Assembly (NCBI RefSeq): GCF_000003815.2
Contig: NC_049994.1
Location: 16,685,280-16,749,279 of the forward strand
Reading direction: 5' to 3'
From: Branchiostoma floridae
Taxonomy: Eukaryota > Chordata > Leptocardii > Amphioxiformes > Branchiostomatidae
Length of the DNA: 64,000 bases
Part shown: positions 2,757 through 44,300 of the stretch, piece by piece
Numbering within the stretch: the first letter of the stretch is position 1
How the letters are laid out: each line of letters opens with the position of its first letter
The notes under the pieces: generated by a model
Databases searched by the model: none
What the model saw: only the letters and a program-made list of their open reading frames with translations
What the model was told of the DNA's origin: nothing
Translations under genes and position numbers: made by a program

Positions 2757-2880
2757 CTGACCCCTCACGGTTCCCAAACACAGACATGGCGTCTGGCTGC
2801 AGACCACAACCAGATGTCAGGGAAGGCTTCTGTTGGAGCGGGGATGACAGACAACCGGCAGACGCGGGAACGACAACGTC
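2757..2880. other. Junction between the two tandem arrays
   Basis: Short single-copy stretch between the 86-bp array and the diverged array of about 150 bp. No gene or splice-bounded exon was recognised. Confidence 0.3.
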
Positions 2881-21712: not shown

Positions 21713-21874
21713 ATGTTGTCTCGCGGACAGGGAGCTTCACGAAGCGGAGCCGCCAGCAGGGCTCGGCGGAGGTGGAGGGAGGACAACCCGCCGGCCCCGC
21801 GGAGGAGCGCCCTGGACGGGCCCGTACAGAAGGTGGTGATCAACGTGAGCGGACTCAGGTTCGTGGAGGACAGT

Positions 21875-21929
<55 letters not shown>

Positions 21930-24900
21930 TGTGTGTGTGTGTGATTGTGATTGTGTGTGTGTGTGTGTATGTGTGTGATTGTGTTTGAGAGAGTGAGTGT
22001 GTGTGTGTTTGTGTGTGATTGTGTGTGCGCGCGCGCGTGTGTGTGTGTGCGTGGTTGTGTGTGTGCGTGTATGCGTATGTGTGTGTGTGTGTATGTGTGT
22101 GTGTGGGGTTCTTTATTTAACGAGCTCGAGATGTGACTCTCCTCAACAACGCAGTTGTGGGGTCGGGTCGTTTGGCGTCCTGGGTTCAAATCTTGTCATG
22201 CTACAGATCATGCGTTCTTGGAAAGGGCACTACATTCCTCACTCCACCCAGGTGTAAAACAGGTACCTGAATTCGGTTGGGGTCTGTCCCTATGGTCTCA
22301 AAAAGGCTATAGAACTACATTTACATTTACCAACAACGCTAACTACAAGACCACGTCTTACTCTGTTTCTCCCTAGGTTTGTGACGACCATGGCCACACT
22401 GGAGACCTACCCAGATAGTCTACTGGGGGACGGCCGCAGGAGAAAGTGGTACTTCGATCCCAACAAGAATGAATACTTCTTTGACAGGTATGGGACACAT
22501 CAATCAGAAGTTATAATGCAATTGCAAGTACGTGGTGGAAACGTAGAAGACATACATGTGACGATAAACAGTTATATAAACAATATTCTACTCTAATACT
22601 TATGAATTCGTCGTTCGATAAGTTTATTCCACGACAAGTAAGGGTCAGATGAACTCAGTTGGCCTACATGTGTAAGTCCTGGAATCAGTCTGACATCCAG
22701 GCTATAGAACGGGTACCTTTAGGTGGTTAGCCTGGCTGTTATTTTTAATCACTTTATTCGAATTTTTAGATCAGTAGTTCATTGATTGCTTCACTAATGT
22801 AGACACATTGTGGGCCTATGAAAATTGAAAATTCTTGGCGCAGCCGTGTCGTAATACCCCTGTCACATTATCCACGATCGTCGGGCGTATCGATGGAAGA
22901 TCGGCCATATTTAAGATCGACAGAGGGTTGCGCGTATTTTTCACCTGAAAACCGCCCCTACCACATATAAGCCATACTTTGTACCGTGCACAATTGTTGT
23001 GCAATGAAGTTATTAGTATAAGCGAGGCTCGGGCGATTGCCGCAGAATCGTCGTCCCATCGATTTTCGCCAAGTGTCACGGGAGTATAAAAAAGATAAAA
23101 ATCCACAACGCGCAGAACACTTTGCTTCAGGTGGTTAACCTGGCTGGCATTTTCAAGGATTTTATAAGATACACCAGTAGTTCATTGACCTCAATGTACA
23201 CAATGGTAAAATGTCACACTAGTCAGCTGTAGCATGTAAGGGTCAGATTCTCTCTGGCCCTTTGTCCTGCACGTGTTTGTGTGAGACAGTAAGTTTACAT
23301 TGCAGACCGCACCTGCATAATTTATGAGGACAGAATTGGGTCCACTAAGAGAAAATTGGATGTTGCTCCACCATTGTACTGACGGGTAATTAGAAGGATA
23401 AACCACAACATTCGACGCGCCTCATGCATAATTTATCACAAAATGATTGCACACCACTTACGATAATACCTGATGTCAGATGATAACTCTAGAAATGGAC
23501 ACATGTCACTCTAACATGTACCCATAGCAAAGTCACACTTCCATGAATATCAACATTTCCCTGTTATCACACTTTAAAAATCACAATAAACAGAGTTGGC
23601 CGGCCAGAGGAATTATTTCCGCTGGCCCGCCGACTCCCCTAGCGCACTATTGACTATTGACTCTATTTGTCTAATTTCTACTATTAGACCACCGATCCGC
23701 TGAGCTTGGTTTTCACTCAAATTGCCAATACTGGCTGCATTGATAAGGTGAATTATAAGACCACGTTGCCACCCTAATCGAAGCTATGTACATGTACTCA
23801 CTTAAAGTGAGTAAAAAGGCGTGAAGTGCTGGTTCCAAGGGTACAACATTGAGGTCTGTTTGGGATTCGAAAACCCATAACCTTTAGATTCTAAGGCAAC
23901 AAACTTAACCATAACACAACATTGCCACATTCCCCAGACACCGCCCCAGTTTTGAGGCGATCCTGCAGTACTACCAGACGGGCGGGATGCTACAGAGGCC
24001 CGAGGAGGTTCCCGCTGAGGTGTTCCTGGACGAGCTGGAGTTTTACGATGTTGGAGAAGAAACTTTGAGAAGGTGAACTATGATCTTTTTCATTCATTCA
24101 TTCATTCAATTACCACGTGTAAAGAAATGTAATGAAATCAAATGATTTACCAGGCTAGTGAAGTTTTCTTGTCACACAACCAGTTCTATCTCATCTCTCA
24201 CCTGCGTACCTCCATTAGCTTCTCGTCGCTATATCTAACCGAAGTAGGTGGCGCTTTTGGAGCGAGGACACAATCCAAAACATGGCTGTTTGTATCCCCT
24301 CTCGTCCTCATCGAAACACATGTACAAGCAGGTGGGAGACATAACTGGCTGTGAAAAAGTATACTCCAATATCCTACATGTATATCCTACCAACCTGATA
24401 AAATCATTTTCGGAAGCAGGGCAAATGACTAACGTTAGTTCACCTTTATCCGTGGGGTAACCTATATCCGTTGTATTGAGAACAGGATATCAAGGGATAT
24501 CAAGTCCGACGGAATATGGTTTTTGTATTTCACGTATCTTCACAATATTGTAGTTTGAGACCACCGTCCGTCGATTTATTTATTTATTTATTTATTTGGA
24601 TTCTCCACACTGGAGGGTATGGCGGAACAGGTGTCAAAAGACACCTTTTCGAAGCCGCCATACCTTAAACATAACAATGATACATCAAATCATAATATAC
24701 ATAAAATACAAGAACAGATATCATAATCAATGTAACGTTCAAATCAAGATAAATCAACTTAACAACACACATACATTATTGAGTCCAAATCTATGAAATA
24801 GATATACATGTAGTCATAATATAGGGCAAAATTATCGTGGCCTTGTGGCAATGCAAGAGGCGCAACAGCATGCTAGTGACCATGTGCAAGCCTGCTCTAG

Positions 24901-27900
24901 CTTGAAGTTTTGTCGGAATCGGTTTTGCATAAATGTAGATAGTTTTCGTTTAAAGGCAGACACGTCGGACGGGCTTGTGTCTGATGCCCCCAGCCCTTTG
25001 GTTTCAACGGGAAGTTTGTTCCAAATTGTGATAAGTCGTGGTGTAAATGAGGAGGCAAATGAAGAAGATCTTACTCTCTGAGGGACTAACATGTGTGCCC
25101 TTAAACTACGTGGCGTTCTTGTAGGGAATGCAGCTAACCTCGCTAGAACTGAATCATATACCTTTGCAAGGGACTTAACGAATACCACAACATCAGACAT
25201 CTCTCTTTGGTAAGACAGTGGTAACAAGCCTAGTCTAGATAGTCTAGACTTGTAGTCCAGGTGTTCAGCGGAGGGCCCGAGGATGTATTTCGTTGCCCTT
25301 CGCTGTACACACAGATTTGCATGACATCCCCAAATATCCCTGTTTATAGATACACCGGATAAAGGTTACCCTGCGGATAAAGGTGACCTAGCGTTAATAG
25401 ATTGACCGTTTTTCCTCCCCAGGTACCGAGAAGAGGAGGGGATGGAGCTGCCCCCTCCTGACGTCCTGCCGCCGCCGGAAGACGAGAGGCTGAAGAAAAT
25501 CTGGCTCCTCTTCAACGAACCGAAGTCGTCAATCCTGGCCAAGATCGTTACAAGTGCGTTTAATTCGTCTACCATATTCAATATGATACAGATGCAATAG
25601 AGCTGTATGGTTTATCTTCTTCATATGTGTATTCCTGTATGTTCGTTTGTTTGTTTCGCATAACCGGTTAACCGTCTGCAGGCAGTTTTGGCGACGCCTC
25701 AGGGGCGAGCCAAATGGTACATCATAGTGTTCAGTCTGCAAGAATTCTAGGAATTGTACAAGCCTTTGTCCACAGGAATGCTGGTCCATAAGAATATTTG
25801 GAATTCCAGTCAGGGAGGCAGGGCTGCTGGAGTCCAAATTCTCCTCAAACTCAGAACATTTTGAGAACTTTAAGTCAACACGTTAACAATGCCTGCAAGG
25901 TCACCTTTTCGCTTTTCTTCTGCTCCAGCCATCTGTGTGATAATGATACTGATGAGCGTGGTGGTGACGTGTATGGAGACTGTACCGGAAGTGCAGGAGT
26001 GGCTGCACACCCCCGCCACAGGCAGCAATGAGACAGGCCCACTTCCGGTGACGCGGAACCCGTTCTTCGTGGCGGAGACCATCTACGTGGCCTGGTTCAC
26101 TCTGGAGCTGGTTTTAGGTATGACGCAATACTTTGCACCCACGTGATCATGACGAAAGCACTATCCACCATGTTTGATGGTTAAACCTACCCACACACCA
26201 AATATTGATGCAATGTATTAGGCTTTCTCCAGTTATGTTGTCCATCCAAAAACATACACATACACAAACACACTCATTGGCAAAGGTAAAAGCTACAATA
26301 TAACAATGAATATTGTTGAACAATGAGTCTTGGGTACCATTCGGGTAGTAGTTGGCTCCTATGTTTGTTTGCTTCTGCTACTCGTCCAAAATTTGTACAA
26401 TTCCAGACGTTAGAAATGTCAAGGTTGGCAGATGGCACAACAGAGAAGCGACTGTATATATTGTATAATAAACGCTAGAGCGAACTACTTTCCGGATGGT
26501 ACCCAGGCTGATTTGACTCAGGACTTTCCGAAAACAGATACGCAGGAATTGATTCTATTGAATAGTAATTCTTGATCAGAACCAATCAATCCTTCATTGA
26601 TATCTAACCTCCGTCGACGATTTTGATGTCTTGTCTTGTGCCCCTAGGGTTCGTGTCCTGCGCGGACCGGTGCAGGTTCGTGAAGGATTACGTCAACGTT
26701 TTGGACTTCATCGGGATCGCGCTATACTTCGTTGAGCTGGGGCTCGAAATGAGGCGAGTCTTTATAGCCGTTCGTTTAGACCCTTTGTTGCTTATTGGGT
26801 GGGTTGATTACTCTTTCTTCGCAGAGTAGTCTTAGCCTCTACCAGGCTCCACATGTCGCTGGAAAATGATAGAAATTGGCCGAATATAGCTAGCTATAGC
26901 CAGGGGAGTGAGCTAGTCGCAAAATACTAATCTGGCATGCTATGTGTCTATATTTTCCCAAATTCTCCTATGTTTTCGGCGACCTGTGGGCTAAGAACTC
27001 CATACGGACCTCATGAATATATACTCGCGTGTGAATCTTCCTTTAAACACCCGTCTAGTGGAGAGAGGCCATAAAAACATTGATTTTAAAATCCATCTAA
27101 CTTTCTTTCCACTGCCGTCCATACATTCAGCTCTAACCTCCCCACGGATCAAATAAACCGCATCGTGAACGCCATGTGGATAGCGCGCCTGGTCCGGATG
27201 TTGCGGATCGTCAAAGTCACCAAGTACTCGGGGGACATGCAGCTTTTCTGGAAAGCAATGGTAGGTCTACCACACTACTGTGTAGGTGCGCACCTAGCAG
27301 TTTATGGCGTTCTTGCAGGTGTTGTAAGCTGCGTTGCTGTCCATGGTGCTGATTGTCAATATTCGGGGTGGTTATGCATGTGTAAGTCATCAGGTACTCC
27401 GGCGACATGCAGCTCTTCTTGAAGGCAATGGTAGGTCTACCAAACTACTGCGTAGGTGCGCCCCTAGCGGTTTACGGCGTTCTTGCAGGTGTCGTAAGCT
27501 GCGTTGCTGTCCATGGTGCTGATTGTCAGTATTCGGGGTGGTTATGCATGTGTAAGTCACCAGGTACTCAGGGGACATGCAGCTCTTCTGGAAAGCAATG
27601 GTAGGTCTATCACTGTGTAGGTGCGCACCTAGCGGTTCATGTCGTTCCTGCAGGTGTCGTAAGCTGCGTTGCTGTCCGTGCTGCTGATTGTCAGTATTCG
27701 GGGTGGTTATGCATGTGTAAGTCACCAGGTACTCAGGGGACATGCAGCTCTTTTGGAAAGCAATGGTAGGTCTACAACACCACTGTGTAGGTGCGGCCCT
27801 AGCGGTTTATGGCGTTCTTGCAGGTGGCGTAAGCTGCGTTGCTGTCCATGGTGCTGATTGTCAGTATTCGGGTGGTTATGCATGTGTAAGTCACCAGGTA

Positions 27901-29542
27901 CTCAGGGGATATGCAACTCTTTTGGAAAGCAATGGTAGGTCTACAACACCACTGTGTAGGTGCGCCCCTAGCGGTTTATGCCGTTCTTGCAGATGGCGTA
28001 AGCTGCGTTGCTGTCCAAGGTACTGATTGGCATTAGTCGGGTTGCTATTATGCTATGCATTTCTACCACTGTGTAGAAATGCGGTTTATCTCGTTCCTAC
28101 GGGTGGCACAAGCTGCGTTGCTGTCCATGGTTCTGATTAGTAATAGTCGCGTGGTTATACATTTCTACCGCTGTTTAGGTGCGCACCTAGCGGTTTACCT
28201 CGTTCCTGCAGGTGAAGCAAGCTGTGTTACTGTCCATGGTGCTGATTAGTAATAGTCGGGTGGTTATGCATTTCTACCACTGCATAGGTGCGCACCTAGC
28301 GGTTTCTGTCGTTGCTACAGGAGCTGTCCAAGGTGCTGATTGGTATAGCCGCCACATTGCTTCGTAATGCAATGAGACAATGAGTAACGTATAAGATTAA
28401 GAACAATGATACACAAAATTGCGCATTGCATCATCGTAGGTTAGTAACTGAGGCCGTCTCCCTGTACCTGAAGGTTGGGAGTTCAAATGCCGGTGATTGC
28501 TGTTCACCGGCACCTGATATTCACACTGCTGTAAAATGCACTTCTCACAACAGGATTCATTTATACCCTGTTCATTGTACACGTAACTAGGCGAGGTAGG
28601 GGATTTCTCCAGGTACATCGAACCTGTAAATACTGTACATAGCGTCTGCCTCCTCTGTCACGACCGGCAAAAGGTAGATGCTCATGCTTTGATAATAGTT
28701 CACTTCATTTTTCTTTATTTTTCCCCAGACCAACAGTATGACTGCCATCATCCTATTCTTCTTCATGACAATTGCGTTGATGTTGTTGTTCTCCTGTGTG
28801 GTATTAATTACTGCACGGAAATATGTGGTGTAATATCTCCGGTACAATGAATATCTATACACCGTACAAATAGCATCTCTCCTTCATATTGTGATCGGCA
28901 GAAGACAGATCTTCACGCTTCAATGATAGTTCACTTTCAATTTTTCTTTGTTGTTTTTCCCAAGACCAACAGCATAACGGCCATCATTCTGTTCTTCTTC
29001 ATGACAACTGCATTGATAGCATTCATATTGATCGGCGGAAGACGGATCTTCATGCTTCAATGTGAGTTCACTTTCATGATCAGTTTTTCTTTGTCCTTTC
29101 CCAGACCAACAGCATGACGGCCATCATCCTGTTCTTCTTCATGACGACCGTGCTGATGCTGCTCTTCTCCTGCGTGGTTTACTACACGGAGATTGACGAC
29201 CCGGACACCAAATTCACCAGCATCCCAGAAACCTTCTGGTGGGCCATCGTGACCATGATCAACATCGGGTACGGCGACTACTACCCGCGCACTATTGTAG
29301 GGAAGATCGTCGGTTCCGTCGCCGCTATAGCCGGTATCGTAGCCCTCTGTTTGGGGATACCCGAGTTTATGGAGTGTTATATTCACCTGTACGAGGCCGC
29401 CAGGTATCACAAGAGGTACTCGCAACGGAAGAACTTTGACATGGCCTCGTCCAAGTTCGGCGCGATAGGAAGTTCGAAGTCGCGCCGTCGCAACTTGAGC
29501 AGGAACAGGGACAAGAACAGGACGTTTAAACTGGTTCTCTGA
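21713..29542 (+). CDS. Kv1 (Shaker)-type voltage-gated K+ channel, divergent
   Basis: Eight coding exons: 21713-21858, 22377-22487, 23938-24072, 25423-25553, 25929-26117, 26648-26753, 27131-27260 and 29105-29542. Phases match at all junctions; the product is about 461 residues. Domains in order: T1 (VVINVSGLRF, NEYFFDRHRPSFEAILQYYQ), S1, S1-S2 loop with N-E-T glycosylation site, S2 (conserved ETIYVAWFTLE), S3 (NVLDFIG), S4 (ARLVRMLRIVKVTKY), S5, pore helix with NIGYGDYYP, S6. Tetrameric plasma-membrane K+ channel by family. Oddities: first S4 charge replaced by Trp; filter Thr of TVGYG replaced by Asn; S6 PVP replaced by G-I-P-E; basic tail ending KLVL. Intron 6 uses a GC donor (gag then gcgagt). 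Vertebrate Kv1 coding regions are usually intronless. The Shaker class is clear; conduction is uncertain. Confidence 0.9.
21876..22112. repeat. TG dinucleotide microsatellite
   Basis: About 235 bp of mostly (tg)n with gtgattgtg and gcgcgcgcg interruptions, starting 18 bp after the Kv exon 1 donor. Its frames are simple-sequence artefacts. Confidence 0.95.
22125..22262 (+). mobile_element. tRNA-derived SINE-like fragment
   Basis: Contains a B-box-like gggttcaaatcttg followed by ttggaaagggcactac, an arrangement shared with the piece at 33690-33830 (gggttcaaatcccg, then aaaaggcactttac). Lies in Kv intron 1. Confidence 0.5.
22848..23095. mobile_element. Foldback, ACCCCTGTCACA ends
   Basis: Imperfect inverted repeat with outer ends taatacccctgtcacattat and aagtgtcacgggagtata and internal inverted blocks (atcgatggaagatcg, cccatcgattttcg). 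No coding capacity; in Kv intron 2. Confidence 0.55.
24435..25398. mobile_element. Foldback element split by a LINE insertion
   Basis: Left part 24435-24573 (tcacctttatccgtggggta with gtttgagaccaccgtccgtc) and right end 25355-25396 (ggataaaggttaccctgcgg) belong to the family also at 16436-16858 and 56811-57016. About 780 bp of truncated LINE separates them, so the LINE is the younger insertion. In Kv intron 3. Confidence 0.8.
24832..25227 (-). pseudogene. 5'-truncated non-LTR retrotransposon, RT C-terminus
   Basis: Minus-strand frame of 131 residues typical of the region after reverse transcriptase in CR1/L2/Jockey-like LINEs: LPLSYQREMSDVVVFVKSLA near the start, then SSFASSFTPRLITIWNKLPV. 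The element runs from about 25353 to a 3' tail of aaat repeats (tttatttatttatttattt on the plus strand at 24574-24597). Everything upstream of the RT tail is missing, as expected for an aborted reverse-transcription insertion. Confidence 0.75.
26329..26512. mobile_element. Foldback element, CCTGGGTACCAT termini (copy 2)
   Basis: Left end cttgggtaccattcgggtag, right end ctttccggatggtacccagg, with gaagcgactgtatatattgt inside. Same family as 6691-6928 and 37441-37832. In Kv intron 5. Confidence 0.7.
27391..28335 (+). pseudogene. Tandem copies of the Kv S4-S5 exon edge
   Basis: Starting inside intron 7, a unit of about 165-170 bp repeats the 3' end of exon 7 with its donor: tactcaggggacatgcagct, cttctggaaagcaatg, then gtaggtctac. 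Copies of the ggacatgcagct block are near 27402, 27577, 27740 and 27908, matching the true exon at 27235. Later units (28050-28335) keep only the intronic part. Units include gctgcgttgctgtccatggt and a usable-looking acceptor (caccag). Each copy retains an intact donor. Coding function of the copies is not supported. Confidence 0.85.
28430..28575 (+). mobile_element. tRNA-derived SINE-like fragment
   Basis: Holds an A-box-like ttagtaactgaggccgt and a B-box-like gggagttcaaatgcc, followed by ttgctgttcaccggcacctg. In Kv intron 7. Too diverged to be a functional tRNA gene. Confidence 0.4.
28729..28833 (+). pseudogene. Decoy copy 1 of the Kv S5 exon start
   Basis: An intact acceptor (tttttccccag) opens TNSMTAIILFFFMTIALMLL, almost the same as the true S5 start at 29105, then diverges and stops at TAA 28831. 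The frame keeps the phase 0 used by exon 7, so splicing here would give a channel ending within S5. Upstream intron sequence is duplicated with it. Confidence 0.8.
28965..29104 (+). pseudogene. Decoy copy 2 of the Kv S5 exon start
   Basis: Acceptor-like cccaag then TNSITAIILFFFMTTALIAF, a second duplicate of the true exon start. It diverges at once into intronic sequence (ttcatgcttcaatg) that leads into the real acceptor at 29104. Spacing to copy 1 is 236 bp and to the true exon 140 bp. Confidence 0.78.
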
Positions 29543-29883
29543 GGACAAGAAACCAAAGATCTCATACTACTAATAGTACTGTCAGTCAGTCCATAGACTA
29601 TGACAAAGACTGTGCAAGAAACAATGAGAAAAAATAACAAGAAAACATGCTCAGCAAAACTTCATATACCTCCTTGAAGTAGTTTTAGTTTTTTTCGAAT
29701 CTGTTGTTTTACTCTTAATTGTGAATTTCTCGCTGATTCTTAAGCCCTTTTCCCACTTAAGGCTACAAAAGTTGAAATCTGTGTGGACAGTTTTGTATTC
29801 TACAAATTGCCTTTAAGTTATATTAATCAATGCAAAAGCAATAGATATGGGTTTGATGTGATGCATATAGTTGTACAGAGTTA

Positions 29884-29889
29884 AATAAA
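29884..29889 (+). terminator. Candidate polyadenylation signal (AATAAA)
   Basis: First AATAAA after the Kv stop codon, 342 bp downstream; another overlaps about 29966-29972. Position is suitable for 3' end formation but not proven. Confidence 0.35.
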
Positions 29890-30390
29890 GCAAACAGTGG
29901 AAAAGAAAGTGTATACAGCTAATTATATGTGACTGTACAATTGTAGAAAAACACAACATTTGGTGAATAAAATAAGGTTATATAAGATATGCAAATATAC
30001 TGGCATCTCAATAACAAAGACAATAAATGTATATCAGTCTTGTCTGTATGTTTATTTGTATTAAGATATAAGTTGTAAATTGGATAATACATTGTATATT
30101 CACTGAAAAAAGGACACAAAAATTACAGATTATTAGAGCACAGAATTTTCTCTGTATACGTATAATATTCATATGTTATTATTATATAATAAGCATACTC
30201 TTCAATTTAACATGTAATAGAGCATTTGTGGGAATTACGGAATAGCTGCCTATTAGTTAGCTTTCTAGCAATTTTGCTTACCTAAATACCATATGATAAT
30301 ATATAGCTTTTATGTACAACATGAGATAGGATGATCCCAACAGAAAGGAACTACACTATTTACATGCTAGTATCACATTTTTGAAAGCAC
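29890..30390. other. AT-rich spacer
   Basis: Very AT-rich, several AATAAA motifs, no exon or repeat recognised. Probably 3' UTR or intergenic. Confidence 0.35.
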
Positions 30391-30391
30391 A

Positions 30392-30719
30392 ACAGGGCTC
30401 TAGCCAGCTCGAAATTCTTTTCCGTCAGCTAATTCCATTGTCGCAAAAACCGCGACAATTAAGTTAGAAAGACGGAACTGAGACCTTGAAAAACGGGTTT
30501 TTAATGAGATTATCATATGCAAAAGGGCACCGACACACACAGTCAACAATCATAACAATAACAAAACAAACAGTGTGTGGCTTTCTGACGTGGACAGCGT
30601 CCCCAAGCCGCCAGTAGCTTCCACCAAGAATTTTTGTCCGTCAAGGTTGACGGATTGGTTTAAAAAAATTTCCGTCACACGCAGCAAATTTCCAAAAACG
30701 GATGCTGGCTAGAGCCCTG
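30392..30719. mobile_element. hAT-like MITE, CAGGGCTCTAGCCAGC ends
   Basis: Perfect inverted termini cagggctctagccagc and gctggctagagccctg about 328 bp apart, with internal related blocks (ttccgtcagctaat, ttgtccgtcaaggttgacgg). CAGGG termini are typical of hAT elements. No clean 8-bp target duplication could be confirmed (aagcacaa against cagcagaa). Confidence 0.75.
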
Positions 30720-30883
30720 CAGCAGAAACAACTCATCCTTTTTTGGTTTGAATTACAACATGCCAAGTTTCAATACAAATAAGGTATTGCATCTCACATT
30801 ACCCAGATGTCTCATCTTCATCCACAAAATTCTTAGCTTTCTGCTTCTGTCCACAAAGTTGACATTTGGCATCATCATCATCA

Positions 30884-31024
30884 TTATCCGGGCGTGCTGG
30901 TTGCACGGATGGCCATGACTCTCTCCCTCCATCCTTCCCTATCCTCCATAGCCTTGGGTAGATCTTCAGCCGAGCAGCCAGAATCATCACAAAGTTGATG
31001 TAGATATGTTTTGCGTGGTCGACA
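30884..31024 (-). pseudogene. 5'-truncated LINE, extreme C-terminus of ORF2
   Basis: Minus-strand frame CRPRKTYLHQLCDDSGCSAE followed by DLPKAMEDREGWRERVMAIR and stop TAA at 30884. The layout (cysteine motif, short linker, DR-x-x-WR-x-x-V, stop) matches the carboxyl end of several invertebrate non-LTR retrotransposon polyproteins. Only this end survives. Confidence 0.7.
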
Positions 31025-31920
31025 TTTGGCAGCATTTTTTGTAAATAATATGGTAATATGCAAAAATATTGTGGGTATTGAGATTGAGTTGGCGAATCAA
31101 CTAATGATACATGACATTGTTTGTACTTTGTCAAAAAATGATAAATTGAAGAAAAAAAAGAAGAGCACTGTAGCACAAAGTGTAACATATGCATAATGAA
31201 TACTCACAAAGTATCTAACAAATATTACTGCGATGGTTATAGATTAAGTTTAGTATCTGTGTTGATCTAATTTTATGATATATATACATTACATCCTAGG
31301 CAATTTTCAACAAGTTTTTACAGCAGTTGGTAATATGTTCACTTTTAACCAAACAACTCCCTCATATTGTATCATTACAGTTTAACTCTTAACACTAAGT
31401 CAATTTCTTCATTCACTGTTCCAATAACAAGTTTGTTACACTCTTCCAATAACCAAAAGAAATATTTGTTTCTTTTCTGTTTCATGTAAACTTCTTTTGT
31501 GACTTATAGTAACAGCTCTATGCTATTCACAAAACAAAAGGGGTTTCCATATTTTCAAGACAAGAAATATTTTGTCCAAATCTTTTTTCTTAAATAAGTT
31601 TTCAGACATAGAAGCAAAAGTTGGTTGTCCAGTAACTTGTTGCACTGTGCAGCCAAGTATGCATGTACAACCAAGTTATAGCCACTTCACTCCAGAACGT
31701 TGAAACCAACAGTTACCAACATGGTATGTAAGAATCAAACTGCCTTTCATATGACCTACAACAAAACAGCTTTGCATGTTGAAAACAAATATTATACACT
31801 TAACCTTTCTACTGCTGCCAAATTGCATTCATAATATAAAGATTTTCTTAACCAAAAAAACCCTACCTCAGCAGGAAAATGTTAACATTATCAATATGAT
31901 ACATTTACATTTAAAGGAAC
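31025..31920. other. AT-rich spacer, no gene seen
   Basis: No exon, RNA gene or recognised repeat; low-complexity aaaaaag runs near 31150. Confidence 0.35.
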
Positions 31921-31921
31921 T

Positions 31922-32316
31922 ACAGTCAAAACTGCCAAAGTGACCACCTCTACATAAAGACCACCTGGCCAATGTGACCACTTTTTGGTCCTTTAGACAT
32001 TTTTCCCAATAAGGCCTACGTCATATTTCCAAACCAGGGCCTGGGAGCTTTTGGGAACAAAAATTGTGATAAAAAAACCCCACCAAACTACACCAGACAT
32101 GAAGAGAATAGTCAAGGGTATTATTTGTGTATATGTTTATGTATACATTTCTATTTTTTGCTTTCACAAACAGCCCAACCAGGCCTTGGCTTGTAAATGT
32201 GTCGTTAGCCTTACACAAGCATAAATAAAGAATCCCATCTTTAGTGACCACCTGTCCATAAAGACCAGATTTTGTCAGTCCCCTGAGTGGTCTTCTTGGG
32301 CAGTTTTGACTGTATA
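31922..32316. mobile_element. CAGTCAAAAC element carrying an insertion
   Basis: TA-flanked inverted ends cagtcaaaactgcc and gggcagttttgactg, with ccaaagtgaccacctctaca near the left end and tgaccacctgtccataaaga near the right. About 230 bp of unrelated sequence (about 32010-32240) lies in the middle, making it longer than the 180-bp members at 12290. Confidence 0.7.
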
Positions 32317-32368
32317 AAACAGGAAAGAAATGTTCAATATCTAGAACGTGTCTGAACGTGACGTTTTC

Positions 32369-35300
32369 CTAGAAGTCCCATTCTTCTTCATCCTTCAGAT
32401 CCAGCTCCTCTATCTTAGCAATGTTGTTCTCTATACTCCCATCCGCATCTGTTGGGAGAACAATGCATTCAATTTATTCTAGTACTGTAAATGCAGAAAT
32501 GTACGCGGTGGATTCATGTTTGCGGTTTTTGCATCGGCCATTTCACCGCGAATTTAAAACCACCGCAAACATTTTTCCAGGGCATTGAGATACTACATTG
32601 CACGGTGCTACCACGAAATTAAAACCACCGCGAAAAGTCCTTTTTCCCGCTACCGCGAAATTAAATCCCCGCGAATTTAAATGCATGTACAGTATCTCAA
32701 AGCTTTTTTCAAATACACCCAGATGCATGGAGCATGGCAGCCAGGCCTAATTATTATTGATATTCCATGTGTATCTGGCTTGGAACTGAACTGAACACTT
32801 TGACAACAAAGATTTGCAATCTACCTGGGGTTTGTATGATTATTGCATTCTTAAATCAAAGACAATAATGTTTTGTCTCATTTCATACAACAAAGTTTAC
32901 TACTTGAGCAGCTTCCAAGATGTTCTCTGTCTCTTTTTCCACTTGGCAGATCTTGAGTAGAAGTTCTTTTGTCTTGAATATCACACAAGACGCAGTTATA
33001 AGCAGGCCCCCTGCCCCAGTCTAATGTGCTGTGTTGTCCACAAAAACCTTGGTTGGTATGTGTATTTTACAGCAGTCAGGCTTTTAGCTAGGATTTTATA
33101 ATAGGGAGTCCAAACTTATTGGTGAGTCGCGGTAAGTGACTATTGTAGGGGGGTCTGGGGGCATCCACCTTCCATGGTGCAGAGTTTTTGATGATTTTAA
33201 GTTAAAACAGTGCATTCTAAGGTATCTCAAGAGGCAAAAATACTGTTACAGAGGTCACAGTAGAAGACTGTGACCACAGATGACCTGGTAGCATCCCTGG
33301 TCAATCAGAATTTCATGCTTGTTAGAGGATTTTCTCCCCAGTATAGGGCGTCCAGGGGCATCAAATTTCTTGTTATTCTAAGAAAAGTGCGTCCAGATGA
33401 CGCGGTGACGCATGCCTGGCTAAAAGCCTGACAGCAGTTAATCTTCTTGAATAAAACATTTACAGCCATTACTAACATTGTCAAGTGACAATACGATGAC
33501 ATACAGAAGGAACAATCCATACCTTTAGGCCAGTGGGGGGTCTCTGTCAGCGGTTTGATGGGGTGCAGCAACTCAATCAGGTTCTCTGCCGATTTTCTTC
33601 TCACCTGAAACCAAGGGAAACACCAACATATAAACATGGGACCCAGGTTGACTCTAGGGCCTTAAGCTTGGCCATTCCAACTTTACGGGCCACAGAACTG
33701 TGCAAGCACTTGTGGTGTTGGTGTGCCAAACATGTAATGGCAGGGTGTTTGGGTCCTGGGTTCAAATCCCGACATATCCCGTTGACGTTGTGCCCTAGGA
33801 AAAGGCACTTTACATAACTTTCCTATCATTTGTAAGAAATTTTGTATTTGGTATGATACAGTGACTCAGGAATTGAACCCCAACCCTACTGCATGTAAAG
33901 AGAGCACTCTGTCTACCAGCTATTGGACAATGTGAAAACCTGAACCTGTTTGAAGAAGGAGTGTGTGATGAGCTGACTAGCCGTGGGTCTGTCCGCTGGG
34001 TCTCTCTGCAGACACAGGAACACAGGAAACACCCACACCATTATTTATTACTAACTAAGACAACATAAAACCTGTACCTGTTTGAAGAAAGAGTGTGTGA
34101 GGAGCTGACTAGCCGTGGGTCTCTTTACAGACACAGGAACACAAACTCGTGAAACTGTGGAGAGAAGACCCCACGCCTGTACCCACTAACTTAAAGACAA
34201 CATAAAAACCTGTACCTGTTTGAAGAAAGAGTGTGTGAGGAGCTGACTAGCCGTGGGTCTGTCCGCAGGTTCTCTCTGCAGACACAGGAACACAAACTCA
34301 TGGAACTGTGGAGAGAAGACCCCACACCTCTACAGTATGTACCCACTAAGACAACAACATAAAAAGCTGTACCTGTTTGAAGAAGGAGTGTGTGAGGAGC
34401 TGACTAGCCGTGGGTCTATCTGCAGGTTCTCTCTGGAGACACAGGAACACAAACTCATGGAACTGCGGAGAGAAGACCCCACACCTGTACACACTTACTT
34501 AAAGACAACATAAAAACCTGTACCTGTTTGAAGAAGGAGTGTGTGAGGAGCTGACTAGCCGTGGGTCTGTCCGCAGGTTCTCTCTGGAGACACAGGAACA
34601 CAAACTCGTGAAACTGCGGAGAGAAGACCCGTTGGTACGGCAACTGTTCGCTGCGCATCATGCTCGACGTAGCCATGCTGCCGCCTATCCCAGAATCCCC
34701 TCCTGCACTGGTCAGGGCGTCGTCGTCTACGTTGGGTAGCGTGGTGGCGTCGAGGAGTCGAGGCATCGTCCCGTTTAGCTTTTCCAGCAACATCTGGGAA
34801 AATACAGGTAAAGGTTGGTTGTACCCCTTTCCACTGAGTGACCAAAGATTTCACAGATCTCTCAGCGGATTTCATAGAAGGAATTTCTTTACGCTTTGTT
34901 TGTTTTAAATCATACTTTTACATAAAAGCATAATTCGATATAGGTTTGGTGCCCATCTCTGTCCTCTTAGCCCTTCACTTGGGCAACACACATATTTGCA
35001 AGCACAGATTATGCTGCAGCAGGGGGCTAGTTTATTAGTGGTGTTGTGTTCAACTTCTTGTAACTTCTAAGTGTTAACTAAAGTAGAAAACAAGTGTGTG
35101 TCATTTCCTGTATCTGTATCTGTATCTATATAGCCGGTATAACCACCCTTCAGCGTAACAGCGTAACACCTTCTACTCAGCTTCTAACAATTTTGCAGTT
35201 AGTCAAAGCTACACATCTTAAGTTAGATCAATTCTTATTTCTAATGTTGAAGGAAAGTTGGAACTTTACTTTACCTGAGTTGCAGGCATGTCAGAAAACG

Positions 35301-38300
35301 GCACGATGCCATTGGCCAGCTCACAAGCTGTGATGCCCAAGCTGTAGATGTCTGTGGACGTGTCGTAGCCAATCAGGTTCTGAAAAACAAGTAGAAAAAT
35401 GAATAGGTATACACGTATTTATTTTGAACAGACACGTGTTGGCACATAATGTTTGTATCAATTCTGTTTTATCTTTAAAACTGACCTCAGACTAATAAGT
35501 ATGACATTTCATTAGTTATAAGTGCAATGCATCTTTGCTACGGCTTGCATACTTTACCCTTACTTGTCTTAATGAGTGCACTGGTTTCCTTACAATTTGC
35601 AGAGGTCTTATACTTGAAGGTAATGTCTGTATCTGTATCTGTATCTATATAGCCGGTATAACCGCCGTTCGGCGTAACACACCAGCTTCGCAGGCACGCG
35701 GCGCGGCAGCAGCTGATTGTCTGAAGCTCCCTTTATGCCAGCATAAAAAATCTAAAGCAAAATTACATTATCATGTACTATCCATATTCATGTGATGCCT
35801 CTGATTGAAGCTTCAACCCAATATTGGTGTATTATTTGCATTTCAGCCCCCCCCCCTCTCCAACCTTACCAACAACAAGCTTTATTGACACAACAAAAAG
35901 TACCTGTTCCAGTAGTTCAGGACTGAACCAGGGCAGTGTACTGATGCTGTTACAGTGGTACTCATGTAGCGATCCCACTCTCTCCCATCTACAGTACCCC
36001 CCTCCTTCTACAGTACCTCCCTCCATCTACAGTACCCTCTCCATCTACAGTACCCCTTCCATCTACAGTACCCCCCTCCCATCTACAGTACCCCCTCCAT
36101 CTACAGTACCCCCCTCCCCACCTTACCTGTTCCAGTAGTTCAGGACTGAACCAGGGCAGTGTGTTGATACTGTTACAGTGGTACTCATGTAGCGATCCCA
36201 CCCTCTCCCATCTACAGTACCCCCCTCCCATCTACAGTACCCCCCCTCCATCTACAGTACCCCCCCTCCCATCTACAGTACCCCCCTCCCCAGCTTACCT
36301 GTTCCAGTAGTTCAGGACTGAACCAGGGCAGTGTGTTGATACTGTTACAGTGGTACTCATGTAGCGATCCCACCCTCTCCCATCTACAGTACCCCCCTCC
36401 CATCTACAGTACCCCCCCTCCATCTACAGTACCCCCCCTCCCATCTACAGTACCCCCCTCCCCACCTTACCTGTTCCAGTAGTTCAGGACTGAACCAGGG
36501 CAGTGTGTTGATACTGTTACAGTGGTACTCATGTAGCGATCCCACCCTCTCCCATCTACAGCACCATACTGATGGAGTGTCTGAGTCCTGTCAGACACAC
36601 CTGGCCTCGCTCCGAGATCAGAATATGGGTCCCCTTCACACTTCTGAAGAAAGGGACAAAATGTGGTGGAATAGGCATGAAATACTGCGTAAAAATGTAA
36701 AAATAAAGGCCTTGTAATTAATTTCCTTCCTCAGGCACTTTTCCATTGCATGCTGCTAACAACTGTTGGCATTTTCATTGCATTGGTACTAGTATTGTTT
36801 CAAACATGAATGCAAAGACACTGTAAAGTCTTGTCATGCATTTTAATTGCTGCAAACATTTTAAAAAAGCACAGTAGATTTGTAGTATACAGCAGTTCTG
36901 TCTCCAAACCTAGGACCTGTCCCTCTGTTCTGGGAAGGAACTTTGCTTGTTGGGACAGAAAAAAAATTAAATCAACCTGTCCCAAAATACTGAGCTTCAT
37001 TGCATGATAATTGATGAAAAAGTATTTCCATGATATTAAAATGACGGATGTAACAAAACAAATTATAACATGGGCTTCCAAACAATGAGAGGGTGTGAAA
37101 GAATTAAAAGCTGGAGACAGTCCTGGTACAAAGACACAGATCTAGAGTTTCTAAGTGACAGTGACTAACCTATGTACATATCCCATCTTGTGTATATAGT
37201 CCAGTGCCAACAGCACATCTCTCAGTATACAGGCGATGGTTGTCTCTCCCAGGCCGTCCGTAAAGTGGGAGTTGATCAAATCACGACACGAACCTAAAAC
37301 ACACATATAAAACACATTTAATTTGTGCATGCACAATTACATGTACATGTATGTTGTACTATTGAAAACGGAAAAGCCAGGCCTCTTTTTTGACATGTAT
37401 GTGGCATACAGGTCTAATGAAACACAATCATAAAGTATAGCTTGGGTGCCATCTAGAAAGTAGTTCGTTCCGACATTTATTATACACTATATACAGTCAC
37501 TTCTCTGCTATTCTGTCTGGGAACTTGGACATCTCTAACACCAGAAAATTTCAATTCTTGTCCATATTTTGGGTGCTGATTGGTCCTATCTGGGTATTGG
37601 TTCGCTCATATGTTTGTTTCGGCTACCCAGGAAACTTGATAACTGATTCCTATTATCAAACCTGGTGTTTGAATGCCTGTTTGAATGAGCAGTCAAGAAC
37701 CCATTCCTTAATTTCTCATTCATAAGTGACGTCACCTCCAAAAGGGTTGAATATATGTCATGTACAGTTCCCCAGAAGGGTGGCAGAAGCAAATATAGGA
37801 GCAAACCACTACCTGGATGGTACCCAGGCTTCATAAGGTATAGGTATTTGAAATAACTAGTAAAAAGTAGTTGTGACTGTCATGCATTAGGCATAACGCA
37901 CCAGTTTCGTGCAGTATACACAACTGTGCCTGCGTAACTCAGACTGTAAGGTCCACTGATCCACTCACACAAGGATGTGCCTACTTTTTTCAATAAGTAT
38001 GGTGGGATCCTCAACTTTACTCATGGTATGATTAGCTGCAAGTACTGGGCCTCCAGCTTTACATCCCACCTGTTTGTCTATTTTGACTGAGTGACTTAAG
38101 TTAGGAAATACTGTAAATACATTTAAGTTTGCGTGGATTTAATTTTGCGGTAGCGGCAATAAGGACTTTTCGCGGTGGTTTTAAGTTTGCGGTAACACCA
38201 TAGACTGCAGTCTAATACCATAATAGAAAAATGTTCACAGCGGTTTTAAGTTCGCGGTGAAGTGGTCATTGAGAAAACCGTGAATATTAATCCACCGCAA

Positions 38301-41300
38301 ACATTTCTGCATTTACAGTAGCCTTTCCAAAAGACACAGCATCCATCAGGATTCAAAGCCAACAACTCTGACCACAAGACTACCTTGCGAGTGAACTTTC
38401 TTTGAAACCAGATCTGCGTAATACATGAATCCAATACAAACACCTGCTATTCATGGAGAATAAAAGCCTGAAATGTAAGATGCCTAACATGATCTGTTTG
38501 GAAAACAAAATGGCGGCCGCACACTTGAGTCTGGCAGAGGGTATCCGTGAAGAACTGACCTGCAGCATCTGCCTGGAGCTGTTCACCAGGCCCAAGGTGC
38601 TGCCATGTGGACACACCTTCTGTCAGGACTGTCTACAGGACCTTGCAAGCAGGCAAGTGCCTTTACAGTGCCCGTGCTGTCGTCGGCAGGTAAGGCTGCC
38701 ACCCCATGGCCAGGGGGTCGCAGGTTTGCCAGACAGTCATATCATAGCCAATATGTGTGGGAGACTCAGACAGCAGACTTCACTGTCGGGGGAAACAAGG
38801 GAACAACCCCAGTCTGGAAACAGGTGCAGCTTTCACCCATCCACGGTGCTCAAACTATACTGTAAACAATGTCAGGTTCCAGTTTGTGAACAGTGTTTAG
38901 AAGAGGCTCATGATGATCATCGAACAACAACCATCAAAAAAGCTGCACAGCAAAGGATTTCAACAGTCCAGACCTTGATGAAGGAAGGGAGAAACATTAT
39001 GGAAAGTTACTTAAGCTTTCTCAGAAGTCTGAGGGAAGAAGAGAAAGCCCTGAATGAAACAAAACGGCAGACAGACAACAGCATCATTCAAGCTTACAAC
39101 CAAATGATGCAGAAACTCACAGACAGAAAAAATCACCTCTTGTCTGAAACAGGAGGAAAACACAAGAAAAACTTGGACAGAATACAGACTGAAAAGGACA
39201 GAGTGTTGCTTGATGTCAATGAACTGTTTGCTGCCTGTGATCGAGCAGAACAAGAACTGCAGCAGGGATGGGTTGAGTTTCTGAGTCAGCAAACCACTTT
39301 GACAGAGGTGGTAGGAAAGTACAGAAGAAAAGCAGCACCAACTCCTGTACAAACCCAGCCTGCTGTCTTTCGGCCCACAGACACCCCAGTACCAGTATTG
39401 GGACATGTGGAGGTCCAGTCTCTCCCAATGACACCAATCCCATCAGCACCTGAACCAATCCCATCAGCACCTGCACCAATCCTTGCAGCACCCGCACCGA
39501 TCCCAGTAGCACCTGCATCTAGTAATGATGCAGTAGGGTACAGAGGCCATCACCATGGTAACCAAAGTCAAGGTGGGCATCAGCCTCAGAAGGTGACATT
39601 TGGAGGACTGGGATCAGGACCAGGACAATTCGATTGTCCACGTGGTGTTACTGTTTCAGATAAAGGGGAGATGTTTGTAGCAGACTGTGGGAACCAGAGA
39701 ATCCAAGTCTTCACCCTGCAGGGAACATATGTCAGACAGGTCCCAACATTCATGTCAGGTAAAGAGAAGATATACCCACATGATGTGACCATGGATGGAG
39801 AGGGGAACCTGTGGATGGTGGGAATTATTGACATTAACAATGATGAATTTGCGGTGCAGTACAACAGACAGGGCGAGGTGCTGAGGAAGTTTCACCTTGA
39901 GAAGACAGGGTGGAGCAGAGGAGTTTCCGTGGACACCAGGAGGAACCACATCCTCATCACACAAACCACAGGAGACTGGTCCCACCCACATGGTATAGTT
40001 TTGGTATTCAGGCCAGATGGGACACTTGTGAGAACTGTGGGTAAGCAGCAGGGGATGGAGTACCCATGGTACATCACTGTGAGTGGGGAAGGGAACATTC
40101 TTGTTTCTGACTGGGACAATCACCGTGTCTATGTGTTCAATGAGGATGGAAAGTTTCTGTTCAAGTTTGGATTTGAGGGAAGTGCTGAAGGTCAGCTGTA
40201 CAATCCCCAAGGCATCTGTACAGACAGGGCAGGTAACATCATCGTGGCAGACAGTGGAAACAGGCGTGTGGAAATGTTTGACAAGAAAGGAAAATTCCTC
40301 AAACACATCACTTCAGATATGAAGAAGCCACTGGCTGTATCCATGGCAACACAGGGGCAGCTGGTCGTAATTGATATCCAAGAGAACATAGTAAACATAT
40401 TTCAGAACATCTGAGTGAGGTAACAATCAAACTTAACGCTCTGTAAACTTACGTTGACGTACAAACTTAAACATTGTAATGAAAGAAATTACAGTTTATA
40501 GAGGCAAAGATAACAATTTACTATCATGTACAGTCTTTAAAAATAAAATAAGAATTAGCAGTTTTGATTAAGTAACCAACTTGATTAACTGATTAGTTTT
40601 GGTTAAGATTTGATCCTAAAAACCACTGTAATCCTAAATTATATATACAATACAGATGAATATTGTGTACTGTATCTTTCCAAGGAATAAAGAATGTTTT
40701 TAAATCATAAAGATACATGGACTGTATACAGTCAAACCTGTCTATAGCGGCCACTTAAGGGACTGGTCAAAATTGGCCACTATAGAGAGGTGGCCACTAT
40801 AGAGAATATGCTAATTAATTGACCACAAGCAATAAGTTACACATGGTTTTAGTACCTACTGATCTTTATTCACACAATACAGTACTGTACATGTACTGCA
40901 ATGATTTTTACACTATATGTATTAAGAAAACAAAAGCTATAAAAAGTCTTAAATGTTCTACAGTTGATATTGTCTGAAGAGACTGGTATCGTCATATTTC
41001 TTTGATCTTTCGTCTTGTATCCTTTGATACTTCGCCGTCCGTGTGTTCCCTCCTGCGTTCACACGTCAGGTTCGCCCATTATGCTAATGTGGTACTCACA
41101 AGAAAAGTCTCGTCATTTTAGGCTTATCTCTTAATAAATGTAAGAATAAAATCCACTATAGTCTGAAGTTAATATCATTTTGTGTTTGCAACAATTCATT
41201 TAGAAAGTTTTTGTGATGAAAATCAACCTAAGGCCATACCAATTTAATTTGTTGGTTCTCGGATTTTTTCCTAAAAAAATTGAAGCGACAGGGCGAAAAA

Positions 41301-44300
41301 AAAAAAAAAAAAAACTTGCAACAAGTCTGGGTTCAGGTCCAGGCTGGTTAGTCCAGACCTGAACTCATGGTATACGTGTGATAGAAATAGTTAATCAGTT
41401 AAAATTACATGCAAAATTGCATGTTGGCATAAATTTGTACAATATACATTAAATTATGTACAGTTGCTACAGTAAACAGAAATGTTCACAAAACATCTCA
41501 AATAGACCAATATAGTATTTTTACAGAGATGCAACGACAACAACAAACATTATTTAAGTTTGCCTCTAGAAATAAAATACCATCGCTGGAAGACTTATTT
41601 GCTCTCTGAGTTGATAAGAATCTGTCTATCCAAGGCTCTAATTACATTTCATGGTCAACTGGTGCAAATTGGAAAAAAAATTACAAATACTTCCACTCCC
41701 CCCAAAATACATGAACAAGCCAAAGTACTGAACTACATGTTGCATAAAACCATAGGTTTATTCTCTCTTTTTGTTACATGTACAATTATTTGTTGACAAA
41801 AAATTAAGATGCAGTTTGATTAAACTTCCTTAGAAAAACCTTAATGTTACATGCAAATCACTGAAATCAGCACTGAAATGGTACACCATGTACTATCTAG
41901 CCAAATCTGCAGTTCCATTAGAAACAGCGTGGGGGCGCTTTTTTGACTTACAGAAGAAGAAAGATGGCCGCCCGAGATTTTCCGACTTCATTTTCATCTC
42001 CATTTGGAAGACTTTGAGCATTTCAGGCATATCAAAACATGTTGGCTATGGAGGTACAAGAGTGAAAAAGTATTGGTGATTTATTGAGTTGTTTGTTTGG
42101 GTGCCGATTTCTGTGTTTCAATTGAAAATTTGCATGTGAAAGTGTGTGTGAGAGAGAGCACATGCTCAGCCGAACTTCTGGTTCTGCTACGTTATGTTAT
42201 GCCCATGTGTATCTCATTTACGATGATTTCTTTGTTCCTAAATATACTTTGCAACAAAAAAGATATGAATCAATTGGTAGCAAAGGACTTGGGGGTGAGA
42301 AAAAGTAAATGCACTGGTACTTTCCAGACGTTCTGTTTCTCTAACGGAACCAAAGTTTTGCAGCACGATTACTGAATGGAATTTTTTTTTTTTTTTTGAA
42401 ATTGGGAAAATTAGAAGCGGCGATTCCGAGAACCAACGAATTAAATTGGTGTGGCCTAAGCGATAGTGTATTAGCAATTTACCTCCGTAATATTGGTGTC
42501 GTCTATTAACCTTATATGACCTCGTTTGTCGGCGGGTATGGGTAGCGCCAGTTTACGAAGTTTTGTTTTGAAAATAAATCAAAGAGGTTTTAAATCCGGC
42601 GTAGGGTGACGATACGGCAGCTGTATATGGCCTAACGCGTGCCAAAACATAGATCAGCGGTCCACGTGGCCGTAATCGGCAGTGTTTTTGTACCTGCGGG
42701 ACCGGAAATCGTGTGGCCGTGGCCGCGTTGGACAGGTGGCCGCTAAGCCTATTTCTTAATCATTACGAATCCAAGGGACCAACAAAAAGTGGCCACTATG
42801 GGCAGGTGGCCGTTATGCAAAGGTGGCCGCTAATACAGGTTTGACTGTAACAGTATATCTCAGTAAAAGATTTGTACTTTCAACAAAAGTCTAAGAAATT
42901 TAGCTTTGAGAGCCTCTATCAATTTTTTACCCAAATATGAGTTTAGAAACCTCATATCTTTGTGAAATATACCAATTTTGTAAATAACGTCCTTATCCAC
43001 ATAATATAAGCAATTTTAAGCATGTATACCTTTAACAAACAAACAAAAGTATAGAATTTCCACCACTAACCACTTGCAATGACCCTGTCACATGTAAGTC
43101 CACTACCTATTTTGAAAGGCCAGTTGAGAAACCTTACCTGTGTAATACATGCAGCCAATAAAAACACCTGCCATTCAAGGAGAACAAAGGCCTGAAACTT
43201 AAGATGGTTGACGTGATCAGCTTGCACAACAACATGGCGGCTGCACACTTGAGTCTGGGGGAGGAAATATGTGAAGAACTGTCCTGCAGTATCTGCCTGG
43301 AGCTGTTCACCAGGCCCAAGGTGCTGCCCTGTCAGCACACCTTCTGCCAGGACTGTCTACAGCACCATGCAGGGTGGGGGGTCCCCCTACAGTGTCCTAT
43401 ATGTCGCAGGAAAATCAGGCTGCCACCTCAGGGGGTCGCAGGTTTGCCGGACAGCTACATTGTGGCTCATTTATGTGAGAGACTCCAACAGCAAGCTACA
43501 CTGTCAGAGGAAACAACGGAAGAACCCCAGTCTGGAAACAGGTGCAGCTCTCACCCCTCTGAAGAGTTCAAAGTGTACTGTAAGCAATGTCAGATTCCAA
43601 TTTGTGAACAGTGTTTGGAAGAAGCCCACAATGGCCATGGCACAACAACCATCAAAAAGGCTGCACAGGAAAGAAGAGATGAAGCTAAAGCCTTGATCGC
43701 TGAGGGGAGGGACATTTTGGAAGGTTACTGCAGCTTCATCAGAGGTCTGAGAGAAACAGAGAAAACTTTACATGAAGAGAAACAGCAGACAGACAACAGA
43801 ATCATTCAGGCTTGCAACACACTCTTGTCTGAAGTGGAACACAACCATCGTAAGAACTTGGAGAGAGTACACAACAAAAGAGAAAGTGTGTTGGCAGATG
43901 TCAACGAACTGTCTGCTGCCTGTGATCGAGCAGAGCAAGAAATGGAGAAGAGAGAGGATCACTTTCTTAGTCAGGAAAGTAACTTGACTGAGGTGGTAGG
44001 AAAGTACAGAGGAAAAGCAGCACCGACTCCCGTACAAACCCAGCCTGCTGTCTTTCAGCCAGTGTTGGGACATGTGACGGTCCAGTTTCTCCCATCTGCA
44101 CCAATCCCAGCAGCACATGCACCAATCCCAGCAGCTCATGCAGCAGGGGGCACAGGTCATCACCATGGTAACCAAAGACGAGAGGAGCACCGGGATCAGA
44201 GGGTGACATTTGGAGGAGAGGGATCAGGAATAGGGCAGTTTGACTACCCGGCTGGGCTGACTGTATCAGATGAAGGGGATATCTTTGTAACAGACAGAGG

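What the first reader, a model, noticed from the sequence alone, without database searches (positions are those of the whole stretch)
27131..36643. Exon edges with their splice sites amplified in tandem at four places in two adjacent genes
The sequence shows four independent cases: Kv exon 7 (3' end plus donor, about five copies), Kv exon 8 (5' end plus acceptor, three copies), STRAD exon 9 (3' end plus donor, five copies) and STRAD exon 7 (3' end plus donor, four copies). In each the unit crosses an exon-intron border and keeps the splice site. Simple intronic minisatellites would not be expected to start at exon borders so often. Inference: a process that favours exon borders, or tolerance of extra splice sites, may be creating decoy or alternative exons here. 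An assembly artefact is possible for the most identical copies.
Basis: partly seen in the sequence, partly recalled or inferred. Interest (0 to 1): 0.72.

Follow-up and report, generated by a model that had tools for sequence, protein, structure and literature searches.

The report
Tandem-copied exon edges in amphioxus genes
In a lancelet genome, the ends of four exons, with their splice sites, are repeated in tandem inside two neighbouring genes; such repeats are already known in lancelets as 'mirages', but their spare exon pieces differ mostly in ways that leave the protein unaltered, as if the working exon kept renewing them.

Summary
A Kv-type channel gene and a STRAD pseudokinase gene carry four tandem arrays, each crossing an exon border: 5, 3, 5 and 4 copies including the real edge; 17 of 17 copies keep the GT or AG dinucleotide. 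The same 513-Mb genome holds arrays matching two published amphioxus globin 'mirages', so the species is taken to be Branchiostoma floridae and the arrays are new members of a known kind. New here: in 8 arrays (four of the window, two on a kinase exon, two globin), exon-derived differences are mostly synonymous (56:15; decoys alone 34:10; codon positions 7/8/55), while wrong frames and introns are not. Yet use of a decoy site would give a stop or frameshift in 15 of 15 sites tested. Best reading: harmless tandem duplications whose units are repeatedly re-seeded from expressed alleles by short-tract conversion or unequal exchange, so selection on the one expressed copy also shapes silent ones. 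A process favouring exon borders is suggested, not shown. The STRAD exon 36471-36643 has a net +1 frameshift at the array edge: conversion, damage or assembly error.

The parts
27131..27260 (+). Kv exon 7 (S4), expressed copy; duplicated edge 27216-27260 plus donor
   Evidence: exon model, array alignment
27386..27430 (+). array A decoy 2: exon 7 3' edge plus GT donor
27556..27600 (+). array A decoy 3
27721..27765 (+). array A decoy 4
27890..27934 (+). array A decoy 5 (most diverged intron part)
28041..28321 (+). units of about 109 bp continuing array A without the exon piece
   Evidence: TRF, sequence
29105..29542 (+). Kv exon 8 (S5-pore-S6), expressed copy with acceptor
28729..28803 (+). array B decoy 1: acceptor plus 5' part of exon 8 (S5); runs into a stop
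28965..29015 (+). array B decoy 2: acceptor plus 5' part of exon 8
34524..34793 (-).
34373..34477 (-). array C decoy 2; could act as a 90-nt in-frame mini-exon
34216..34320 (-). array C decoy 3; could act as a 90-nt in-frame mini-exon
34078..34169 (-). array C decoy 4 (13-nt deletion, stop)
33946..34023 (-). array C decoy 5 (truncated, most diverged)
36471..36643 (-).
36299..36379 (-). array D decoy 2
36127..36207 (-). array D decoy 3
35904..35984 (-). array D decoy 4 (most diverged)

Best explanation
These are amphioxus 'mirages': tandem duplications of roughly 130-240 bp whose two ends fell one in an exon and one in the neighbouring intron. Such a duplication leaves the whole exon intact at one end of the array, with extra partial copies in the intron, so it is harmless if the real splice site is used (geometry: shown; splicing: inferred from published cases). 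The units are not left to decay. They are repeatedly rewritten from expressed exon copies, including diverged alleles, by short gene-conversion tracts or unequal crossing-over. Only changes made since a unit's last passage through an expressed position escape selection, so the silent copies show mainly synonymous differences (pattern shown; process inferred).
For: Four arrays, each crossing one border, 17 of 17 copies with GT/AG. Arrays matching two published mirages in the same assembly: offset 157 at a 3' exon border as BflGb9, three repeats plus the real exon at a 5' border as BflGb6 haplotype 2. A kinase exon has mirages on both edges. Exon-derived columns in 8 arrays: S 56: N 15; decoy-only S 34: N 10; null N fraction 0.66-0.79; P at most 7e-15 and 4e-9 over the five settings tried. 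Codon positions 7/8/55; wrong frames 8:62 and 10:60; intron parts of two arrays, the same columns read in three frames each, 26:79. N/S rate ratio about 0.10-0.11. A single functional lineage leaving neutral snapshots (my bound, N fraction at least 0.56) is rejected, P 1.6e-9. The unit farthest from the real exon is the most diverged in 4 of 4 window arrays (intron parts of A, B and C; D by eye). The 4 array A decoys carry the Arg also found in a Kv paralog, while the expressed copy has Lys. B. floridae non-crossover conversion tracts are mostly under 200 bp, and heterozygosity is 3.2-4.2% in sequenced amphioxus species (abstracts and passages of PMC12500494 and PMC12862219).
Against: Synonymous divergence between copies (about 0.11-0.7, tiny site numbers) exceeds the published heterozygosity and, in array A, mostly the intron divergence of 0.06-0.15, so plain allele sampling is not enough; a long-lived pool of exchanging copies must be assumed. 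Array B (intron divergence 0.22-0.29) looks old, and its decoys may once have been functional. No transfer event, haplotype comparison or RNA was seen. Only 8 arrays; two were chosen because published and four because a reader flagged them; only the two on L031 came from a search that did not aim at mirages. A blind scan for period-3 differences found only 3 of the 8 known mirages.
Confidence: 0.6

Rival explanations
1. Ordinary one-off tandem duplications that decay neutrally; the exon pieces are dead on arrival.
For: Some decoys are damaged (C4 deletion and stop, C5 truncation, B1 stop). The class is known to be unstable (passages).
Against: Exon pieces differ mostly at synonymous sites even decoy against decoy (34:10, P 4e-9 or less), with clean wrong-frame and intron controls.
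Confidence: 0.08
2. The decoys are used: alternative, poison or mini-exons under their own selection (for example C2 and C3 as a 30-residue in-frame insert in STRAD, or B1 as an early-stop exon of Kv).
For: C2 and C3 are 90-nt, phase 0-0 pieces with a pyrimidine-rich acceptor and no amino-acid change against the expressed copy. B1 has a pyrimidine-rich acceptor, a conserved S5 reading and then a stop.
Against: Use of a decoy site alone gives a stop or frameshift in 15 of 15 sites tested. Array A decoys have an in-frame stop just upstream and no pyrimidine-rich acceptor (sequence). RT-PCR of globin genes is reported to suggest regular splicing (passage).
Confidence: 0.15
3. Assembly artefact: collapsed or expanded haplotypes at these loci.
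For: D1-D3 exon pieces are identical. The STRAD exon frame breaks exactly at the array edge.
Against: Intron parts differ between copies by 6-29% in A and B and by 6-50% in C. The published BflGb6 and BflGb9 structures are recovered at the published size and count. Only one full-length place in the genome for A and for D.
Confidence: 0.07
4. A mutational process targets exon borders (transcription- or splicing-linked breakage).
For: 4 of 4 contiguous arrays in the two genes cross a border, against about 0.15 per unit by chance; L031 has both edges of one exon duplicated.
Against: Post hoc choice of the window. Arrays elsewhere in the sample do not overlap the matched stretches, L031 apart. Among 142 myosin-head match rows I saw by eye no clear tandem repeat of a segment; a few neighbouring rows overlap by up to about 30 profile positions where a match runs on past stops. 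That test is insensitive: L031's decoys were not listed as rows.
Confidence: 0.1

Closest known systems
Amphioxus 'mirages' in Adh3, globins BflGb6 and BflGb9, TnC and PGBD5 (PMC3087553, PMC3902484; passages seen)
   Different: New genes (Kv, STRAD and a third kinase gene); four arrays in two adjacent genes; both edges of one exon in L031; no word beginning with 'synonymous' occurs in either main text
Intron gain by tandem genomic duplication (for example PMC4974935, title and start of abstract seen)
   Same: Tandem duplication that includes splice-site sequence inside a gene
   Different: Here the existing intron is kept and the copies stay intronic; no new intron is shown
Mutually exclusive or duplicated exons (general knowledge)
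   Same: Tandem copies of exon sequence with splice sites
   Different: Copies are partial (one border only) and mostly unusable in frame

Membership tests
amphioxus mirages | tandem repeat unit spans an exon-intron border and includes the splice site | tested here: met
   four arrays, 17 of 17 copies with GT or AG
amphioxus mirages | occurs in an amphioxus genome | tested here: met
   arrays with the published size, edge and count of BflGb6 and BflGb9 found in the same assembly; assembly size 513 Mb fits the B. floridae assembly (recalled)
amphioxus mirages | copy number varies between haplotypes or somatically | not testable with these tools
   one assembly only; reported for BflGb6 and Adh3 (passages)
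amphioxus mirages | normal mRNA is made despite the extra splice sites | not testable with these tools
   no RNA; decoy use would break the frame in 15 of 15 sites tested
intronic minisatellite | array lies wholly inside the intron | tested here: not met
   all four include about 45-105 nt of exon
mutually exclusive exons | each copy is a complete exon with both splice sites, usable in frame | tested here: not met
   copies carry one exon border; 15 of 15 single uses tested give a stop or frameshift; C2 and C3 are a possible exception
dispersed transposable element | similar copies elsewhere in the genome | tested here: not met
   one full-length place for A and one for D, plus three short partial hits for D; B and C not searched

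The most novel reading that the evidence does not exclude
Silent exon copies in mirage arrays and the expressed exon form one exchanging pool: conversion runs both ways, so selection on the single expressed copy polices copies that are never translated, and the copies in turn feed synonymous variants (and occasionally damage, such as the STRAD frame break) into the working exon. This would raise synonymous diversity at exon edges that carry arrays and make such edges conversion-driven hot spots.
Probability: 0.4. Interest if true: 0.72.

Novelty: new member of a known kind. Interest (0 to 1): 0.5.

Why it matters
Mirages were described as a peculiarity of amphioxus genes and a possible route to new introns. 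If silent copies are continually rewritten from expressed alleles, they are a natural, countable record of short gene-conversion tracts and of purifying selection acting through conversion on sequence that is never translated. B. floridae has pedigree and population sequence data in print (PMC12862219, PMC12500494) with which this could be tested directly, along with whether decoys ever become exons or introns.

Tried and rejected
Neutral decay (rejected by the codon-position pattern). Single-lineage snapshots of the working exon (bound rejected). Dispersed repeat for A and D. Old arrays shared with the Kv paralog: the paralog has the same exon order and one match each for exons 7 and 8, and the tandem-repeat rows seen there hold no unit above 47 bp, though that output was cut.

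A blind scan for period-3 differences in 28 arrays was too weak: of the 8 known mirages, 3 reached 5/100 shuffles or fewer (C, L031d, L079), D had no stretch to score, and A, B, L031a and L083 did not stand out (11 to 66 of 100); of the 20 arrays without a known exon none reached 5/100 (L003 came closest, 7/100). Rates from match rows of family searches were dropped as insensitive. A survey of chaperonin exons (PF00118) did not complete.

Rows dropped before the S:N count: array B beyond codon 17 (B2 homology ends; the further B1 codons hold more synonymous changes), unaligned unit edges, the codons of the oldest L083 copy after its indel, the codon after the L083 piece, and the first two codons of the L079 piece, one of which holds an amino-acid change. 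Columns with gaps were counted on the remaining copies. Of the two changes that make the stop in C4, the script scored one as synonymous.
Full report
WHAT IS THERE. The window holds two adjacent genes. On the plus strand lies a Kv-type potassium channel with eight exons from 21713 to 29542 (with exon 6 taken to end at 26753 so that the frame runs on; the protein so joined matches Pfam BTB_2 and Ion_trans). On the minus strand lies a STRAD pseudokinase, of which eight exons from 46385 to 32369 were traced (best PDB match STRAD alpha, E 1.7e-110); its first exon or exons were not sought. Four arrays cross exon borders: A, Kv exon 7 donor, 5 copies; B, Kv exon 8 acceptor, 3 copies; C, STRAD exon 34793-34524 donor, 5 copies; D, STRAD exon 36643-36471 donor, 4 copies. 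Copies start about 45-105 nt inside the exon, not at the border. 17 of 17 copies keep GT or AG.

WHICH GENOME. The window is C16:16685280-16749279 of a 513,431,437-base assembly. A globin search gave nine exon matches; stretches around all nine were fetched. One (L079) has a tandem repeat with offset 157 at the 3' border of the exon, and another (L083) has repeats spaced 154, 158 and 158 bp at the 5' border, three copies plus the real exon. These are the edge, size and count that PMC3087553 gives for BflGb9 (157 bp) and for BflGb6 haplotype 2 (three repeats) of Branchiostoma floridae (passages). So the genome is taken to be B. floridae, and the window arrays belong to the published class of 'mirages'. 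The same class is reported for Adh3, TnC and PGBD5 (passages). The original Adh3 paper was not seen. Of the other seven globin loci, two have local arrays that contain little or no exon (L078, L082) and five gave no repeat.

ANOTHER CASE. Sixty-nine loci that had come with family and protein searches (241 kb, some overlapping) were scanned for contiguous tandem arrays. In one of them, a kinase exon (L031), both edges are duplicated: three acceptor copies (acceptors ending at 1201, 1348 and 1500) and three donor-edge copies (by eye in the sequence). The other arrays in those loci did not overlap the matched stretch; one (L046) lies close to its exon but is a short-unit repeat in the intron. Other exons in those loci were not annotated.

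THE NEW PATTERN. In-frame exon pieces of 8 arrays (A-D, two of L031, two globin) were aligned codon by codon. Variable columns: synonymous 56, amino-acid changing 15; between decoys alone 34 and 10. By array, S:N is A 8:3, B 8:3, C 9:3, D 3:1, L031 4:0 and 5:0, L079 9:2, L083 10:3. The decoy-only count has nothing from L079 (one decoy) or the L031 acceptor array (identical decoys). By codon position the variable columns are 7, 8 and 55; shifting the frame gives 8:62 and 10:60; the intron parts of A and L083, the same columns read in three frames, give 26:79 pooled. The expected share of amino-acid changes is 0.66-0.79 depending on transition and CpG weights; C>T mutation at CpG in this species is only about twofold raised (PMC12862219, passage). 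The N/S rate ratio is about 0.10-0.11.

WHAT IT MEANS. A decoy that decays neutrally should show mostly amino-acid changes. Even if all differences between decoy and expressed exon were shared equally between a constrained and a free lineage, the share of changing columns should be at least about 0.56 (my bound); 15 of 71 is far below (P 1.6e-9). Either the decoys are translated, or their sequence comes recently from expressed exons of diverged alleles. Translation is unlikely as a general answer: use of a decoy site alone gives a stop or frameshift in 15 of 15 sites tested, the 13 of the window and the 2 acceptors of L031 (for D the frame downstream of the break was used; the L031 donor and the globin decoys were not tested), and array A decoys have no plausible acceptor. 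Re-seeding by short-tract conversion or unequal exchange fits the reported biology: heterozygosity 3.2-4.2% in sequenced amphioxus species, non-crossover conversion tracts mostly under 200 bp, about 10,000 paternal and 5,800 maternal events in a B. floridae family with 104 offspring (abstract and passages of PMC12500494). It also fits the gradient: the unit farthest from the real exon is the most diverged in 4 of 4 window arrays (intron parts of A, B and C, with B close to a tie; D by eye), as PMC3087553 noted for globin array ends (passage). By exon piece alone, A2 rather than A5 has the most amino-acid changes. The 4 array A decoys share Arg with a Kv paralog (C16:7743399 region) where the expressed exon has Lys, so the expressed copy is probably the one that changed.

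WHAT DOES NOT FIT WELL. Synonymous divergence between copies (about 0.11-0.7 on 8-23 sites) is above the published heterozygosity and, in A, mostly above intron divergence (0.06-0.15). A pool of several exchanging positions would hold more diversity than one locus, which may explain part of this (inference). Array B is older, with intron divergence 0.22-0.29, and its decoys may have been functional for some time. Only the two L031 arrays came from a search not aimed at mirages. A blind period-3 scan recovered 3 of the 8 known mirages and none of 20 arrays without a known exon.

STRAD EXON. The traced STRAD exons join in phase except 36643-36471, which has one nucleotide too many and an in-frame TAG just where the array unit begins; with an X put for the broken codon, the human protein aligns without a gap across the place. 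The sequence there matches the array units. This is either conversion from the array into the working exon, a real damaged allele, or an assembly or polishing error; it cannot be decided here.

EXON-BORDER PREFERENCE. In the two genes a random unit crosses one border with p 0.14-0.17, and 4 of 4 contiguous long-unit arrays do. Because the window was picked for this, the nominal 5e-4 is not a test. A genome-wide count is needed.

NOVELTY. The arrays are new members of a known kind. Searches of the held paper library for amphioxus with mirage, minisatellite, tandem repeat and exon-border terms listed two papers that I recognised as being on the class, and neither main text holds a word beginning with 'synonymous'. 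The coding signature in the silent copies therefore appears unreported as far as those searches go; most subscription papers are not held.

Noticed in passing
36471-36643 (-): STRAD exon has a net +1 frameshift and in-frame TAG at the proximal edge of array D; the other traced STRAD exons are in phase.
   Followed up: partly
L031:1180-1560 and 1820-2380: A kinase exon elsewhere in the genome has both its 5' and 3' edges, with splice sites, duplicated in tandem.
   Followed up: yes
38429-40414 and 43162-45018 (+): Two long open frames with RING, B-box and NHL matches (TRIM-NHL type) lie on the opposite strand inside one long STRAD intron.
   Followed up: no
26754-26759 (+): Kv exon 6 appears to use a GC donor (GCGAGT); inferred from the reading frame.
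   Followed up: no
28041-28321: Array A continues as units of about 109 bp that lack the exon piece: either exon pieces were lost, or an older intronic repeat later captured the exon edge.
   Followed up: no
1252-5159: Two large tandem arrays (86-bp and about 152-bp units) of unknown context upstream; no Pfam match in the one reading tested.
   Followed up: partly
21877-22105: A long GT repeat begins 19 nt downstream of the end of Kv exon 1.
   Followed up: no
34216-34477 (-): STRAD decoys C2 and C3 could be spliced as symmetric 90-nt exons encoding an unchanged 30-residue repeat; the acceptor is made of coding sequence.
   Followed up: partly
L082:880-1101: A third globin locus has a 116-bp duplication starting near the donor with almost no exon sequence.
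   Followed up: no
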